The position numbers were made by a program, and so were the translations under genes. From NCBI GenBank assembly GCA_018262975.1, contig JADFDG010000002.1, positions 219,523 through 283,522 on the forward strand: a stretch of 64,000 nucleotides of DNA, in the 5' to 3' direction. Positions 9,766-17,353 of the stretch are shown one piece after another (positions within the stretch are counted from its first letter, which is position 1; each line of letters opens with the position of its first letter). The stretch comes from Gammaproteobacteria bacterium. GTDB lineage: Bacteria > Pseudomonadota > Gammaproteobacteria > Pseudomonadales > JADFDG01. The notes under the pieces were generated by a model. That model worked only from the letters and a program-made list of their open reading frames with translations, was not told the origin of the DNA and did no database searches.

Positions 9766-10482
9766 TCAGGCGCGCCGGAACAACAGGTCCCACACGCCGT
9801 GGCCGAGGCGCTCGCCGCGCGCCTCGAACTTGGTGTGCGGACGCCAGGCCGGCACCGGCACGTAGCCACCTTCCGCCGACTCGTTGACCAGCGCCGGCTC
9901 GGCGGCGAGTACCTCGAGCATCCACTGCGCGTAGTTTTCCCAGTCGGTGGCGAAATGCAGCAGCGCGCCCGGCTTCAGCTTGCGCGCCAGCAGGGCCACG
10001 AAGGCCGGCTGCACGATGCGCCGCTTGTGGTGGCGCTTCTTGTGCCAGGGATCGGGGAAGTACAACTGCAAGCGGTCAACGGACGCATCGGGCAACATGT
10101 GCTCGAGCACTTCCACGGCGTCGTGGTGCAGCGTGCGCAGGTTGGCCAGGCCCTTTTCCTCGATGCCCATCAGCAGGGCACCGACGCCGGGCGTGTGCAC
10201 TTCGATGCCGAGGAAATTCTTTTCCGGTTCGGCGGCGGCCATGGCCAGCAGCGAGCCGCCCATGCCGTAACCGATTTCCACCACCAGCGGCGCCGCGCGA
10301 CCGAACAATGCGGCGGGATCGACCGCCTGCGCCTGGTATTCCACGCCGAAGCGCGGCCACAGTTCTTCCATGGCGCGTTCCTGGCCCTTCGTGAGCCGGC
10401 CTTCGCGCAACACGAAACTGCGCACCTTGCGCAGCGGCTTGCCGGTTTCCGGATCGAACTCCGGCGTGTAGACGTCGCTCAT
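9766..10482 (-). CDS. trmB: tRNA (guanine-N7-)-methyltransferase TrmB
   Basis: The 238-residue SAM-dependent enzyme makes m7G46 in the variable loop of t[18 protein letters not shown] is the SAM-binding loop, and [15 protein letters not shown], near residue 150, is the TrmB signature. The ATG at 10482 lies one base after the stop of thiG, and the gene closes a minus-strand series DUF423-thiS-thiG-trmB. It converges on the diguanylate cyclase with a 10-base gap. The linkage of thiazole synthesis and TrmB recurs in related genomes. Confidence 0.95.
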
Positions 10483-10483
10483 G

Positions 10484-11266
10484 TCAGGAAATCAGCCCGC
10501 CCAGCGGGCTGGAGGCGCTGGCATACAGTTTCTTCGGCATGCGCCCGGCGAGGAACGCCTCGCGGCCGGCTTCCACCGCCTTCTTCATTGCCGAGGCCAT
10601 CAGTACGGGATTTTTCGCCGCCGCGATCGCCGTGTTCATCAGCACACCCTCGCAGCCGAGCTCCATGGCGATAGCCGCGTCGCTCGCGGTGCCCACGCCG
10701 GCGTCTACCAGGATCGGCACTTCCGCCTGCTCGAGGATGATGCGCAGGTTGTACGGGTTGACGATGCCGAGGCCGGAACCGATCAGCGAGCCGAGCGGCA
10801 TCACGGCGATGCAGCCGATCTTCTCCAGCTCTTTGGCGATCACCGGGTCGTCGCTGGTGTAGACCATCACGTCGAAGCCGTCCTTCACCAGCTCCTCGGC
10901 CGCCTTCAGCGTTTCCGTCACGTGCGGGAACAGCGTCTTCTGGTCGGCCAGCACTTCCAGTTTCACCAACTTGTGGCCATCCAGCAGTTCGCGCGCCAGC
11001 CGGCAGGTGCGCACCGCGTCCTTCGCGTTGAAGCAGCCGGCGGTGTTCGGCAGGATGGTGTACTTCTCCGGCGACACGTAGTCGAGCAGGTTGGGCTCGC
11101 CGGCGTTCTGGCCTATGTTGGTGCGGCGGATCGCCACGGTGACGATCTCGGCGCCGCTGGCCTCGATGGCCGCGCGCGTCTCGTCGAAATCCTTGTACTT
11201 GCCGGTGCCGACCAGCAGGCGCGACGCGAAGGTGCGCCCGGCGAGGGTGAAGGTGTCGTTGCCCAT
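10484..11266 (-). CDS. thiG: Thiazole synthase ThiG
   Basis: This 260-residue TIM-barrel enzyme condenses 1-deoxy-D-xylulose 5-phosphate, dehydroglycine and ThiS-thiocarboxylate into the thiazole phosphate of thiamine. It opens with [19 protein letters not shown], the family N-terminus. VKLEVLAD carries the Schiff-base lysine (about residue 100). [28 protein letters not shown] is the phosphate-binding end. A GGAGA ribosome site precedes ATG 11266. thiS lies immediately upstream, as expected for partners. No TPP riboswitch is visible before this operon. Confidence 0.96.
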
Positions 11267-11284
11267 GGTGTCTCCGGTTGTCTG

Positions 11285-11485
11285 TCAGCCGCCGCCGATG
11301 GCGTGGACGATCTCGATGCGGTCGTTGTCGCGCAGCACGGTCTGCGCGTGCAGGCCTTTCGGCACGATGTCCTCGTTCACTTCCACGGCAATGCGCCGGC
11401 CGGCGAGATCGAGCGCGGCCACCAGCGTGGACACCGTGGCGCCGTCCGGCAGCTCGCGCGGCTCGCCGTTCACGAAGATGCGCAT
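11285..11485 (-). CDS. thiS: Sulfur carrier protein ThiS
   Basis: A 66-residue ubiquitin-like protein ending in the required Gly-Gly (HAIGGG), whose C-terminus is adenylated and thiocarboxylated to deliver sulfur to ThiG. It starts with MRIFVNGE, the standard beta-grasp opening. The gene is 18 bases upstream of thiG and 5 bases downstream of DUF423. Confidence 0.93.
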   Translation of the reverse strand: MRIFVNGEPRELPDGATVSTLVAALDLAGRRIAVEVNEDIVPKGLHAQTVLRDNDRIEIVHAIGGG

Positions 11486-11490
11486 GGCAG

Positions 11491-11856
11491 TCAGCCCTTC
11501 AGCGCCGCGTACGCCAGCGCCAGCCAGCCGACGATGAACGCCACGCCGCCGACCGGCGTGATAGCGCCCAGCGTCTTCACGCCGGTGAGCGCCAGCAGGT
11601 ACAGGCTGCCGGAGAACAGCACGATGCCCACCGTCAGCGCGACGCCGGCGGTGTTCACCGCGCCGGCCGGTTGTGCGCCGGCGATGATGCCGGCCAGCAC
11701 CAGCGCCAGCGCGTGGTACATGTGGTACTCGGCGCCGGTGTTCCAGGTGGCCAGCAGTTCCGGCGTGAGTTTCGCCTTGAGGCCGTGCGCACCGAAGGCA
11801 CCCGCCATCACGGCCAGGGCGCCATTGATGGCGCCGGTGGCGATCATCCAGTTCAT
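11491..11856 (-). CDS. DUF423 family inner-membrane protein (YgdD-like)
   Basis: The 121-residue protein has four predicted membrane helices and the family sequence GAFGAHGLK near residue 20, followed by WNTGAEYHMYHALAL. DUF423 proteins are small inner-membrane proteins of unknown function. I chose ATG 11856, which has a GGAGAA ribosome site. Longer in-frame starts would lie in the REP-like repeat. It is the first gene of the thiS-thiG-trmB series and may share its promoter, though that gives no functional link to thiamine. Confidence 0.85.
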   Translation of the reverse strand: MNWMIATGAINGALAVMAGAFGAHGLKAKLTPELLATWNTGAEYHMYHALALVLAGIIAGAQPAGAVNTAGVALTVGIVLFSGSLYLLALTGVKTLGAITPVGGVAFIVGWLALAYAALKG

Positions 11857-11868
11857 CAGGTTCTCCCT

Positions 11869-11892
11869 GTAGCGAGGGGGCCATACCCCCGA
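11869..11892 (+). repeat. REP-like single unit, copy 3
   Basis: GTAGCGAGGGGGCCA followed by TACCCCCGA: one full unit with a G-to-A change in the centre. A degenerate second half (about 11901-11925, GCAGCGAGGCTGCCATGG) follows. It sits between the rpoH terminator and the DUF423 start. Confidence 0.7.
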
Positions 11893-11930
11893 CCGCTTTC
11901 GCGCAGCGAGGCTGCCATGGCCCCGCAAAC

Positions 11931-11957
11931 AAAAAGGCCGCGTGATTATACGCGGCC
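11931..11957 (-). terminator. Rho-independent terminator of rpoH
   Basis: Read on the minus strand, a GGCCGCG/CGCGGCC stem (11957-11951 and 11942-11936) with an 8-base loop is followed by five T. It lies 23 bases beyond the rpoH stop. Confidence 0.85.
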
Positions 11958-11979
11958 CCGGTTCATGCCTCGCGGCGAA

Positions 11980-12861
<882 letters not shown>

Positions 12862-12893
12862 GGCTGGATACCTCTGGGGGTACTTTCCCGATA

Positions 12894-12920
12894 TTAGCAC
12901 TCGGATTATATGAGTGCTAA
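12894..12920. promoter_or_regulatory. CIRCE operator (HrcA binding site) over the rpoH promoter
   Basis: TTAGCACTC (12894-12902), nine bases, GAGTGCTAA (12912-12920): every base of the classical CIRCE inverted repeat matches and the spacer is exactly nine. HrcA binds CIRCE and represses chaperone operons, usually groESL and dnaK, until heat titrates GroEL. Here the next gene is rpoH, 33 bases away. The spacer contains the likely -10 box, so bound HrcA should block the promoter. Confidence 0.92.
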
Positions 12921-12936
12921 GCCCCCGGAAAGTTCC
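12905..12936 (-). promoter_or_regulatory. rpoH promoter: TATAAT inside CIRCE plus sigma-E-like elements
   Basis: On the minus strand TATAAT occupies 12910-12905, within the CIRCE spacer, with only a poor -35. A second reading fits a sigma-E promoter: GGAACTT (12936-12930), 16 bases, then TCATA (12913-12909). Either places the transcript start inside the proximal CIRCE arm, giving a leader of roughly 37-40 bases. A sigma-E promoter for rpoH is known in E. coli (P3). Its presence here is inference. Confidence 0.6.
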
Positions 12937-12997
12937 CGGAACATATCCTTGTGAATCAGTGGGATACAAAGTCCCGCCCTTCGTAGGGAGGGGGTGG

Positions 12998-13993
12998 TCA
13001 GGCCGGCTCCACGTCGCGCAGGTGGCGGCCCACCGCCAGCCAGGCACCGGCCAGGCCCAGCAGCGCGCCCAGCGCCACCAGTGCCAGCGAGCCGCCGATG
13101 CCCAGGCCCGCCAGCACGAACGCCGACCCGTACAAGGTCACCAGCGCCTGCACCGGCCCGCCCACCCAGGCCACCAGCAGGGCAACCAGCACCGCGGCCG
13201 CCAGGCCACCGGCCAGCCCGAACCACAGCCCCGTGTACAGGAACGGCCGCCGCACGAAGGCATCGGTGGCGCCCACCAGCTTGACCACCAGGATCTCCTC
13301 GCGACGGCTCTCGATGGCCAGGCGGATCGTATTCACCACCACCAGCAGCACCGCCAGCGCAAAGGCCGCGCCCAGCGCCTGCGCCAGCCGCTCACCGATC
13401 GCCAGCATGGCCGCCAGCTTCTGCAGCCAGCCGCTGTCCAGTTGCGCGATGTCCACCTGCGGTTCCTTCGCCAGCGCCTCGCGCACCTGTTCCGCCACCG
13501 CGACCGACGCCGGCTGCACCACCAGCACGCCGGGCAGCGGGTTGCCCTCGATGCTTTCCAGCACTTCGCCGAAGCCCGACTGCGCGCGGAACTCCGCCAG
13601 CGCCTGCTCGCGCGTGACCACGTCCACCTTCACCACGTCGTCGCGCTGGCCGATGCGGGTCGCCAGCGCGCGCTGGGCGCGCTCGTCCACGTCCATCTTC
13701 AGGAACAGCGACACCTGCGCCTGCCCTTCCACCTGGCCGGCCAGCGCGCGCACGTTATCGAGCACCACGTAGAGCGTGGCCGGCAGGCTGAGCGCCACCG
13801 CGACCACCAGCACGGTCATCAGCGAGGTCAACCATTGGCGCGCCATGCGCAGCGCGGCGTCGCGGGCGCTGGCGCGGTGATGGTCGAGTGCGGCGTCCAG
13901 GCGATCGCGCCAGCGCACCTCGTGTACCGAGGCGCCGCCGCGCGGCGCCGGCTTCGGAGCGGGCTTCACGTCAGTGCGGCGATCAAGGGCCAT
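12998..13993 (-). CDS. ftsX: Cell division protein FtsX
   Basis: The 331-residue permease-like partner of FtsE belongs to the divisome and controls septal peptidoglycan hydrolases. A cytoplasmic N-terminal stretch of about 55 residues is followed by TM1 ([21 protein letters not shown]). A periplasmic domain of roughly 100 residues and three C-terminal helices (about 190-310) come next. The start at 13993 overlaps the end of ftsE by 11 bases. Together with ftsY this is the conserved ftsYEX cluster, with rpoH next on the same strand behind its own promoter. Confidence 0.95.
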
Positions 13994-14693
13994 CGGCGTC
14001 GCCCTCCCCGTCCACCCACGCGGCCGCGTCGCTGCCGATGTCCTGCACCAGTTCGCCGGCGCGCAGGGTCAGCAGCCGGTGGCGGTAGCGCGCGATGAGC
14101 GCGAGGTCGTGCGTGGCGATCAGCACCGAGGTGCCCACCCGCGCGAACTCCTCGAACAGGTCCATGATCTCGGCAGCCAGCGCCGGATCGAGGTTGCCGG
14201 TAGGCTCGTCGGCCAGCAGCACCGGCGGCCGGTTGACCACCGCGCGGGCGATGCCCACGCGCTGCTGCTCGCCGCCCGACAGGTTGAGCGGGCTGAGCTT
14301 TTCCTTGCCCAGCAAACCGACCTTGTCCAGCGCGGCACGCACGCGGCGATCGATGTCCGGCGCGCGGAACCCGGAGATCACCAGCGGCAACGCCACGTTG
14401 TCGAACACGCTGCGATCGAACAGCAGGTGGTGGTTCTGGTGGACCATGCCGATGGAACGGCGCAGCGCAGGGATATCACGGCGACCGGCGCGGTTCAGGT
14501 TCATGCTGTTGACGCTCACCGTACCACTGGAGGCACGCTCCATCAGCAGGATCAGCTTGAGCACCGTGGACTTGCCGGCACCGGAATGGCCGGTCAGGAA
14601 GGTCATTTCGCCCGGCGGCAAGGTGAACGACACGCCCTTGAGCGCCTCGTGGCCGTTGTCGTATTTCTTGCCGACGCGGTCGAAGACGATCAT
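13983..14693 (-). CDS. ftsE: Cell division ATP-binding protein FtsE
   Basis: This 236-residue ABC ATPase pairs with FtsX and couples ATP hydrolysis to activation of septal amidases. Walker A is GHSGAGKST (about residues 35-43), the ABC signature is LSGGEQQR, Walker B is [13 protein letters not shown], and the H-loop is ATHD. Length and motif order are normal. ATG 14693 lies six bases after the ftsY stop. Confidence 0.96.
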
Positions 14694-14699
14694 CGCCGG

Positions 14700-15857
14700 T
14701 CAGCCCGCCTCGAACAGCGCGGCGACGAATTCCTTCGCGTTGAACACGCGCAGGTCGTCGATCTTCTCGCCGACGCCGATGTAGCGGATCGGGATGCCGA
14801 ATTTCTCGGCCAGCGCGAACACGATGCCGCCCTTGGCGGTGCCGTCGAGCTTGGTGACCACCAGGCCGGTGAGGCCGACCGCCTCGTTGAACTCGCGCAC
14901 CTGGTTGATGGCGTTCTGGCCGGTGCCGGCGTCGATCACCAGCAGCACCTCGTGCGGCGCCGACGGGTCGATCTTGCCCATCACCCGCTTCACCTTGCGC
15001 AGCTCGTCCATCAGGCCGGCCTTGTTCTGCAGTCGCCCGGCGGTATCGGCGATCAGCAGGTCGGCACCGCGCGACTGCGCAGCCGCCAGTGCGTCGAAGC
15101 ACACGCTCGCCGAATCGGCGCCGGTGTGCTGGGCGATCACCGGCACGCCGTTGCGCTCGCCCCACACCTGCAACTGCTCGACCGCGGCGGCGCGGAAGGT
15201 GTCGCCGGCGGCCAGCAACACGCTGCGGCCGTCCGCCAGTTGCTTCTTCGCCAGCTTGCCGATGGTGGTGGTCTTGCCGACGCCGTTCACGCCCACCACC
15301 AGCACCACGTAGGGCTTCTTGCCGGCATCGACCACCAGCGGCGCCTGCACCGGCACCAGCAGGTTGGCGAGTTCCTCCTGCAGCGCGTCGTACAGCGCGT
15401 CGGCGTCGATCAGTTCCTTGCGGCTGACGCGCCCGGTGAGGTTGTCGATGATGCGCCGCGTGGCGTCCACGCCCACGTCGGCCACCAGCAGCTGCGTCTC
15501 GATCTCCTCGAAGATCTCGTCGTCGATTTCCTTCTTGCCGACCAGCACGTTGACGATGCCGGTGGCCAGCGCGGCGCGCGTCTTGGCCAGCCCCGACTTC
15601 ATGCGGCCGAGGAACCCGCCACCGTCGGCGGCAGGCGCGCCGGCTCCTGCGGCTTCAGCCGCGGCGATGTGGGCGTCGGTCAGCGCCGGCGCATGCGGCA
15701 GGGTCGGCGCATCGTCGGACACCGGCACGCCGGGCGCCGGTTCCGCGGGGGCGGCCGGCGCCGCCTCTTGCGAGCGGCTGAAACGGAAGAAACGGCGCAG
15801 CGCGCTCTCTTTCTGGGGTTCCGTGCCGGAGGCGGGGGTATCGTCGGGAGCGGTCAT
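14700..15857 (-). CDS. ftsY: Signal recognition particle receptor FtsY
   Basis: The 385-residue SRP-type GTPase docks ribosome-SRP complexes at the membrane during cotranslational insertion. An acidic, Ala/Pro-rich A domain (about 1-80) precedes the helical N domain and the NG GTPase core. The P-loop is [22 protein letters not shown] is the G3 region, and [10 protein letters not shown] is G4. The gene is the first of ftsYEX and is divergent from the M16 peptidase gene 101 bases away. Confidence 0.96.
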
Positions 15858-15958
15858 GGGCCTGGAACCGGAAAGCCGGGACGCACGGCGCGAAACGAGG
15901 ATCGCGTCACGTCGCGGCAGGGGTTAATTCGCGGGCTGCTATCGTATCATTGGCCGCC

Positions 15959-17353
15959 ATGCGAATCACATTGCGACACCTCACCCCACGCGGCGTCACC
16001 CGCGGCAGCCTCGCCCGTGCGGCGCTGCTGCTCGCCGCCACGATTGCAGCCACCCTGTCCGGCCCGGCCACCGGCGCGACGGCCCATGAGCAGACGCTAG
16101 CCAACGGCCTGCGCGTCATCGTCCAGGAAGACCACCGCGCCCCGGTAGTCATGGCGCAGGTCTGGTACCGCGTGGGCTCGACCTGGGAGCCGCCCGGCCT
16201 GACCGGCATCTCCCACGTGCTCGAGCACATGATGTTCAAGGGCACCCGCCAGGTGGGGCCGGGCGAGCTGGCGCGCCTGGTCGGCCGCTTCGGCGGCGAA
16301 CACAACGCTTTCACCAGCACGCACTACACGGCCTACTACCAGTACTACGACAAGTCGCGGCTGCCGCTCGCGCTGGCGCTGGAAGCCGACCGCATGCGCG
16401 AGCTGCAGATCGACGAAAACGAGTTCCGCAAGGAAATCGAGGTGGTGCGCGAGGAACGCCGCATGCGCGTGGAGGACAATCCCACCTCCACCGCCTGGGA
16501 AAAGGTGCGTGCCACCGCGTTCCTCGGCACCCCGTCGGGCCAGCCGGTGATCGGCTGGGCCGACGACCTCGCCAACATCGGCGTGGACGACCTGCGCGAC
16601 TGGTACGACACCTGGTACGCGCCCAACAACGCCATCCTGGTGGTGGTCGGCGACGTCAAGGCCGAGGACGTGTTCCGCATGGCGCAGCAACAGTTCGGCG
16701 CGCTCAAGTCGCGCCGCGTGCGCGCCGCCCCGGTACCGCGCACCCCGCCATCGCCCGGCCTGCGCGAGATGACGCTGCCGGTCGCCGTGCGCGTACCCAC
16801 CCTGGCCATGAACTGGAACGTGCCCAGCCTGATGACCGCCGACAGCGGCGGCAACGACGCGTGGGCGCTTTCCGTGCTCGCCGGCGTGCTCGACGGCGGC
16901 ATGAGCGCGCGTTTCGAGCGTGAGCTGGTGCGCAACCGCAAGGTCGCTGCTTCCGCGGGCGCCGGCTACAACCCGCTGGACCGTGGCGACACCCTGCTGA
17001 CGGTGCACGCGGTGCCGGCCAACGGGCGCACGCTCGATGATCTGAAGAAAGCGGTGCGCGAGATCGTCGCCAACCTGCGCGACAAGCCGCCCGCCGACGA
17101 TGAACTGGCACGCGTGAAGGCGCAGGTGGTCGCCGAGCTCGTCTACCAGCAGGATTCGCTGGCCGGCCAGGCACAACTGATCGGCGCACTGGCGACCATG
17201 GGTTACGACTGGCGACTCAAGGACAGCTGGGCCGACAACATCATGAAGGTCACCGCCGCCGACGTGCAGCGCGTGGCGCGCACCTGGCTGGTCGATGACC
17301 GCCTGACGGTTGCCCGCATCGTGCCGGCCAGCGCGCCGGCGAAGAAGGAATGA
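15959..17353 (+). CDS. Secreted M16 zinc peptidase (catalytic partner)
   Basis: This 464-residue insulinase-family peptidase has the inverted zinc motif HxxEH at residues 86-90 (HVLEH). The third ligand is in the VVREERR segment about 75 residues on. A signal peptide (about 1-42, ending near ATGATA) predicts periplasmic location. I chose ATG 15959 over an in-frame TTG nine bases earlier. The next gene overlaps by four bases and encodes an M16 paralogue without the zinc motif, the usual active/inactive pair of bacterial M16B enzymes. Substrates are unknown but are probably short periplasmic peptides. Confidence 0.9.
   Translation: MRITLRHLTPRGVTRGSLARAALLLAATIAATLSGPATGATAHEQTLANGLRVIVQEDHRAPVVMAQVWYRVGSTWEPPGLTGISHVLEHMMFKGTRQVGPGELARLVGRFGGEHNAFTSTHYTAYYQYYDKSRLPLALALEADRMRELQIDENEFRKEIEVVREERRMRVEDNPTSTAWEKVRATAFLGTPSGQPVIGWADDLANIGVDDLRDWYDTWYAPNNAILVVVGDVKAEDVFRMAQQQFGALKSRRVRAAPVPRTPPSPGLREMTLPVAVRVPTLAMNWNVPSLMTADSGGNDAWALSVLAGVLDGGMSARFERELVRNRKVAASAGAGYNPLDRGDTLLTVHAVPANGRTLDDLKKAVREIVANLRDKPPADDELARVKAQVVAELVYQQDSLAGQAQLIGALATMGYDWRLKDSWADNIMKVTAADVQRVARTWLVDDRLTVARIVPASAPAKKE

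What the first reader, a model, noticed from the sequence alone, without database searches (positions are those of the whole stretch)
12894..12936. Perfect CIRCE operator covering the rpoH promoter
The nine-base arms and nine-base spacer match the classical HrcA operator exactly. The spacer contains TATAAT, and a sigma-E-like GGAACTT-N16-TCATA overlaps it. CIRCE normally controls groESL and dnaK. On rpoH it would put the activator of the heat-shock regulon under the GroEL-titrated repressor, so HrcA, sigma-32 and perhaps sigma-E form one nested circuit. If sigma-E initiates the transcript, membrane stress could also bypass HrcA. I know of no classical example of CIRCE directly on rpoH, but I could not search the literature.
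Basis: partly seen in the sequence, partly recalled or inferred. Interest (0 to 1): 0.82.

Follow-up and report, generated by a model that had tools for sequence, protein, structure and literature searches.

The report
HrcA operator fused to rpoH promoters
A heat-shock repressor's binding site sits on top of the promoters of the gene for the heat-shock sigma factor, and the same arrangement recurs across many families of Gammaproteobacteria that still carry the repressor, so it looks like a widespread control switch and not a local oddity.

Summary
Observation confirmed: a perfect CIRCE (12894-12920) lies 32 bp upstream of rpoH (minus strand), overlapped by GGAACTT-N16-TCATA. The genome encodes HrcA; its other CIRCE with at most 2 mismatches is at groESL. 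The site is not peculiar to this genome. In 142 genomes of the order with an rpoH hit, CIRCE (<=2 mismatches) precedes rpoH in 37 of 40 hrcA carriers and 6 of 102 without detected hrcA; in a class-wide draw in 55 of 62 and 5 of 26 upstream rows. Aligned on CIRCE, 103 rpoH regions show GAAC[TC] in one narrow register (77 of 103; groES 0 of 29) and TGnTAnnnT across the right arm (100 of 103; groES 4 of 29). Best reading: one DNA segment is HrcA operator, sigma-E promoter and extended -10 promoter, so HrcA should gate both; simple bypass by envelope stress is less likely. Mechanism is inferred; rpoE was not searched for. CIRCE on rpoH was predicted before in Geobacter sulfurreducens (PMC545781): a variant of a known kind. 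My paper searches showed no description of the composite, but Permina and Gelfand 2003 was not held.

The parts
11980..12861 (-). rpoH, heat-shock sigma factor sigma-32 (293 aa)
   Evidence: TIGR02392, 400 bits
12894..12920 (.). perfect CIRCE, predicted HrcA operator
   Evidence: found at rpoH in relatives
12930..12936 (-). GGAACTT, sigma-E -35-like element
   Evidence: GAAC[TC] in this register in 77 of 103
12909..12913 (-). TCATA, sigma-E -10-like element (TCnnA), made of the end of the left CIRCE arm plus spacer
12915..12920 (-). TTAGCA, weak sigma-70 -35-like hexamer inside the left CIRCE arm (4 of 6, 18 bp from the -10)
   Evidence: sequence; inference
12891..12899 (-). TGCTAATAT, extended -10-like element spanning the right CIRCE arm
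   Evidence: TGnTAnnnT here in 100 of 103 rpoH regions and 4 of 29 groES regions
12905..12910 (-).
   Evidence: 1 of 103
12871..12875 (-). AGAGG, possible ribosome-binding site
   Evidence: sequence; inference
12998..13993 (-). ftsX, gene upstream of rpoH (context)
13983..14693 (-). ftsE (context)

Best explanation
The segment 12891-12936 is a composite rpoH control site. On the minus strand a sigma-E promoter (GGAACTT-N16-TCATA) and an extended -10 promoter (TTAGCA-N18-TAATAT with TGn before it) overlap, and the CIRCE operator is built from parts of both: the last two bases of its left arm start the sigma-E -10, and its right arm holds the TG and the TAA of the extended -10. In unstressed cells HrcA, helped by free GroEL, would occupy CIRCE and keep both promoters low; when misfolded protein draws GroEL away (or heat inactivates HrcA), HrcA would leave, and sigma-70 and sigma-E holoenzymes would start rpoH. 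Sigma-32 then drives groESL, grpE and dnaK from their sigma-32-like promoters, and new GroEL restores HrcA. Shown here by sequence: the elements, their conserved register, hrcA, and the tie between hrcA and the site. Inferred: HrcA binding, sigma-E and sigma-70 use, repression of both.
For: Perfect operator, none in 100 shuffles. HrcA: TIGR00331 313 bits, cut-off 197. Genome-wide, CIRCE with up to 3 mismatches only at rpoH and at groESL. CIRCE at rpoH goes with hrcA: 37 of 40 versus 6 of 102 genomes, 55 of 62 versus 5 of 26 rows; Fisher p 3e-24 and 5e-10, not corrected for relatedness. Register: GAAC[TC] at -17..-10 from CIRCE in 40 of 43 and 37 of 60 rpoH regions, against 0-4 at 11 other offsets and 0 of 29 at groES CIRCEs of hrcA-bearing order genomes; the full pattern GAAC[TC][TA]-N14-17-TCnnA in 75 of 103, 1.8 in shuffles. 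TGnTAnnnT 100 of 103 versus 4 of 29. A composite DNA pattern, searched without rpoH, hit 58 of 369 class genomes; 30 of 30 fetched loci lie just upstream of rpoH (one other of the 58 is at clpB, see against). Sigma-32-like promoters (13 of 14 positions) precede groES, grpE and dnaK; best at rpoH 9. GroE raising HrcA binding: PMC8533110, reviewed in PMC6032397 (passages). Sigma-E driving rpoH P3 in E. coli: PMC8103513 (passages).
Against: No binding, transcript or mutant data. The sigma-70 scan found no promoter by its rule: both hexamers match 4 of 6. In the class draw the sigma-E register is seen in only 37 of 60 and A at spacer position 3 in 41 of 60. Eleven regions without detected hrcA keep CIRCE (6, 5); five of those genomes are at least 95% complete. 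Among hrcA carriers, G104 and four class rows (G215, G180, G169 and one of two rows of G175) have more than 3 mismatches at rpoH. One composite site (G215) is upstream of clpB, so the composite is not confined to rpoH. In a Xylella fastidiosa nitrogen-starvation study hrcA rose fourfold at 2 h yet rpoH rose twofold at 8 and 12 h (PMC3224663, passages), which does not look like simple repression, though times differ and its rpoH upstream was not examined here. Genomes are related, so counts are not independent events. No other genome of the window's family is held.
Confidence: 0.72

Rival explanations
1. HrcA controls rpoH only through the extended -10 (sigma-70) promoter; the GGAACTT element is a relic or serves another ECF sigma factor, so sigma-E has no role at this site in this organism.
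For: TGnTAnnnT is more constant (100 of 103) than the GAAC[TC] register (77 of 103); rpoE was not tested in this genome.
Against: GGAACTT is exact here with N16, and in the order the register holds in 40 of 43; 53 of 117 regions with neither CIRCE (<=2 mismatches) nor detected hrcA also hold a sigma-E-like promoter against 2.6 in shuffles, which points to selection of its own.
Confidence: 0.15
2. Sigma-E holoenzyme overrides HrcA: the first reader's bypass, with envelope stress raising rpoH whether or not HrcA is bound.
For: The -35 element (12930-12936) lies outside CIRCE, so sigma-E could dock there while HrcA is bound (sequence).
Against: The -10 element lies inside CIRCE (12909-12913), so open complex formation and HrcA binding should exclude each other; inference from position only.
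Confidence: 0.1
3. The CIRCE at rpoH is a leftover that HrcA no longer uses.
For: Regions without detected hrcA can keep CIRCE-like sequence.
Against: Here the operator is perfect, better than the groESL site (2 mismatches), and the hrcA frame is open with a full-length family match.
Confidence: 0.03

Closest known systems
CIRCE upstream of rpoH in Geobacter sulfurreducens (predicted, PMC545781 Table 8, passages seen)
   Same: Perfect CIRCE close upstream of rpoH (-51 from the translation start there), predicted HrcA target; groESL also a target
   Different: A delta-proteobacterium; there hrcA-grpE-dnaK-dnaJ also has CIRCE, here it does not; a fused sigma-E promoter was not described in the passages seen
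CIRCE/HrcA control of groESL
   Same: Same operator type and, in this genome, presumably the same repressor
   Different: At groES a TAnnnT ends at the first base of CIRCE (22 of 29, versus 4 of 103 at rpoH) and there is no GAAC[TC] register (0 of 29)
E. coli rpoH P3, sigma-E dependent (PMC8103513, passages)
   Same: rpoH transcribed by sigma-E
   Different: E. coli is among the 14 control genomes (it rings for Cpn10) but not among the 7 that ring for hrcA, so no HrcA layer
[quoted passage not shown]
   Same: By its title, the same regulators in the same groups; it may already list rpoH as an HrcA target
   Different: Not held, not read; only its citation was seen

Membership tests
HrcA/CIRCE regulon | Operator TTAGCACTC-N9-GAGTGCTAA near a heat-shock gene | tested here: met
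   0 mismatches; rpoH
HrcA/CIRCE regulon | hrcA encoded in the same genome | tested here: met
HrcA/CIRCE regulon | Co-occurrence of site and hrcA in relatives | tested here: met
   37 of 40 versus 6 of 102; 55 of 62 versus 5 of 26 rows; not corrected for relatedness
HrcA/CIRCE regulon | HrcA binds the site and represses the gene | not testable with these tools
   needs EMSA, footprint, mutant
Sigma-E promoter | GGAACTT, 15-16 bp, TCnnA (consensus recalled) | tested here: met
   (N16 here); in relatives the GAACTT-to-TC gap is 16 in 51, 15 in 21, 17 in 5 and 9 in 1 of 103
Sigma-E promoter | rpoE present and used | not tested
Sigma-70 extended -10 promoter | TGn before TAnnnT (recalled) | tested here: met
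   TGCTAATAT at 12891-12899; same pattern in 100 of 103 regions
Sigma-70 promoter with -35 | -35/-10 hexamers with at least 9 of 12 matches | tested here: not met
Sigma-32 promoter at rpoH | CTTGAAA-N11-16-CCCCATnT (recalled) | tested here: not met
   best 9 of 14; 25 of 200 shuffles reach 10

The most novel reading that the evidence does not exclude
Across Gammaproteobacteria that keep hrcA, rpoH is a core HrcA target along with groESL, and in most of them its operator is physically fused to a sigma-E and an extended -10 promoter, so one 46-bp segment integrates cytoplasmic folding load and envelope stress. The E. coli scheme, with no HrcA, would then be a stripped-down descendant in which loss of hrcA let the operator decay while its promoter letters stayed.
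Probability: 0.55. Interest if true: 0.78.

Novelty: new variant of a known kind. Interest (0 to 1): 0.62.

Why it matters
Common accounts (recalled) set positive sigma-32 control (E. coli) against negative HrcA/CIRCE control (Bacillus). A fused site would place the repressor above the sigma factor in many Gammaproteobacteria, make the heat-shock response a nested circuit with envelope stress as a second input, and give a simple test of how two sigma factors and a repressor share one stretch of DNA. It also offers a case where loss of a regulator and decay of its operator can be followed across families.

Tried and rejected
TATAAT in the spacer as the -10: in 1 of 103 aligned regions, the window's own. 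A sigma-32 promoter at rpoH: best 9 of 14, and 25 of 200 shuffles reach 10. CIRCE or a sigma-32 promoter upstream of hrcA: no CIRCE with up to 3 mismatches; best sigma-32 score 10, reached in 34 of 200 shuffles. A plasmid comparison of 10000-17000 matched 2122 records, none covering 80% of the query; the five listed rows are 68-74% identical over the rpoH-ftsEXY part, the other 2117 were not seen, and it was not used. Rfam gave nothing at its gathering thresholds in the window. A family-level survey was empty because no other genome of the family is held.

Operator remnants: among 117 regions with neither CIRCE (<=2 mismatches) nor detected hrcA, 53 hold a sigma-E-like promoter; 58 alignments on it give a mean of 6.3 of 16 arm positions against 4.0 at other offsets. 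Eight rows reach 11-13 where their best other offset was 8, but 43 of 58 rows score 8 or less. I do not call these proven fossils, since promoter letters overlap the arms.

Paper searches for HrcA or CIRCE with rpoH or sigma-E: of the seven papers I opened, passages only (PMC545781, PMC4890791, PMC8103513, PMC3224663, PMC10490939, PMC6032397, PMC8533110), only PMC545781 placed CIRCE at rpoH in what I saw; the other listed papers were seen as listings.

Full report
OBSERVATION. The window holds one CIRCE, TTAGCACTC-GGATTATAT-GAGTGCTAA on the plus strand, at 12894-12920, with no mismatch; no other site with up to three mismatches exists in the window, and 0 of 100 shuffles had one. The gene downstream on the minus strand is rpoH (TIGR02392, 400 bits), start codon at 12861, 32 bp from the operator. 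Upstream of it come ftsX, ftsE and ftsY. GGAACTT-N16-TCATA at 12936-12909 minus is the only match to GGAACTT-N16-TCnnA in the window, expected 0.03.

THE GENOME. The window lies in a 3.3 Mb assembly of 29 contigs, 99.95% complete. No other genome of its family is held. The 80 named RpoH relatives listed (best of 589) are, by their names and my recall of taxonomy, Gammaproteobacteria, and from this I infer the class. hrcA is present in an hrcA-grpE-dnaK-dnaJ order (dnaJ by reading the ORF). CIRCE with up to three mismatches occurs at rpoH (0), upstream of groES-groEL (2), and as a 3-mismatch site overlapping the groESL one (groES/EL). None precedes hrcA. Sigma-32-like promoters matching 13 of 14 positions precede groES, grpE and dnaK (shuffles reaching 11: 7, 4 and 2 of 200); the best at hrcA is 10 and at rpoH 9 (consensus recalled).

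RELATIVES. An order-wide draw gave 145 genomes; 142 had an rpoH hit and 42 an hrcA hit; 40 had both. I took about 420 bp upstream of the rpoH match from all 142 (30 as loci, 112; L120 and L148 are shorter). CIRCE with up to 2 mismatches was found in 37 of 40 with hrcA (39 of 40 at up to 3; the exception is G104) and in 6 of 102 without a detected hrcA. By eye the 37 span 18 families. A class-wide draw gave 104 genomes, 93 with rpoH; of 92 upstream rows not already in the order set I used 88 (28 loci, 60; L316 is short). The four weakest hits, G156, G150, G202 and G176, were left out for lack of fetches; G156 has hrcA. CIRCE (<=2) was present in 55 of 62 rows with hrcA (58 at up to 3) and 5 of 26 without (hrcA; genome G175 gives two rows, one with CIRCE and one without). 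Of the eleven regions with CIRCE and no detected hrcA, five are in genomes at least 95% complete. Relatedness is not corrected for.

ARCHITECTURE. Aligned on CIRCE, 103 rpoH regions (43 order, 60 class, up to 2 mismatches) show GAAC[TC] at -17..-10 in 40 of 43 and 37 of 60, against 0-4 at eleven other offsets and 0 of 29 at groES CIRCEs. The gap from GAACTT to TC is 16 in 51, 15 in 21, 17 in 5 and 9 in 1. A at spacer position 3 (completing TCnnA) is in 41 of 43 and 41 of 60, and in 5 of 29 at groES. TGnTAnnnT across the right arm is in 100 of 103 versus 4 of 29. At groES a TAnnnT ends at the first base of CIRCE in 22 of 29, versus 4 of 103 at rpoH. So one operator is placed in two different promoter registers. 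The groES set: 38 of the 42 hrcA-bearing order genomes were searched (G022, G044, G061 and G104 left out), 41 hits, 30 fetched, one without CIRCE dropped, the rest taken at up to 3 mismatches.

SPECIFICITY. The composite pattern (GAACT, 8-11 bases, perfect CIRCE with A at spacer 3), drawn up from the order's rpoH sites, hit 58 of 369 class genomes; by eye 57 of the 58 are in the hrcA list (G149, 62% complete, is not). All 30 loci fetched lie upstream of rpoH, one of them (L257) with rpoH cut by the contig end. In a phylum draw 5 of 398 genomes matched, all from the window's class: four at rpoH, and G215, which is also one of the 58, upstream of clpB. So the composite is not strictly limited to rpoH; the other 27 of the 58 were not examined, apart from the window's own site. 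Named loci: 20 of 80 have CIRCE (<=2) within 300 bp upstream of the rpoH match, among them Alcanivorax, Pleionea, Ketobacter and Methylomonas, and 11 of these 20 meet the full sigma-E pattern in register; the printed Acinetobacter, Halomonas, Pseudomonas and Enterobacterales loci have none (39 of 80 printed).

MECHANISM. Inferred from position: HrcA on CIRCE covers the sigma-E -10 and most of the extended -10, so it should block both. GroE raising HrcA binding is reported for Campylobacter jejuni and reviewed for others (PMC8533110, PMC6032397; passages). Sigma-E transcription of rpoH P3 in E. coli is reviewed in PMC8103513 (passages), and sigma-E binding to the rpoH promoter of Vibrio alginolyticus is reported in PMC4890791 (passages). 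In Xylella fastidiosa under nitrogen starvation hrcA rose at 2 h and rpoH rose at 8 and 12 h (PMC3224663, passages), which does not look like simple repression; its rpoH upstream was not examined.

PRIOR ART. The 2003 survey of these regulons by Permina and Gelfand was not held. My searches of the open-access library showed no description of the composite, but I opened seven papers, passages only, and saw the rest as listings.

VERDICT. A real, conserved site whose regulatory role is inferred; new variant of a known kind; interest 0.62.

Noticed in passing
L378, composite site at 1501-1542, gene from 1650: In genome G215 the sigma-E/CIRCE composite precedes clpB, while that genome's rpoH upstream has no CIRCE-like site (best 6 mismatches).
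   Followed up: partly
L005:2464-2490: A 3-mismatch CIRCE-like site overlaps the groESL operator in the window's own genome, on the side nearer groES.
   Followed up: no
upstream of rpoH in G033, G099, G127, G001, G045, G081, G089, G218: CIRCE-like sequence with 11-13 of 16 arm positions in the expected register although no hrcA was detected; possible decayed operators.
   Followed up: partly
G104, rpoH upstream (L227): hrcA present but no CIRCE-like site at rpoH (best 9 mismatches), the one exception in the order draw.
   Followed up: no
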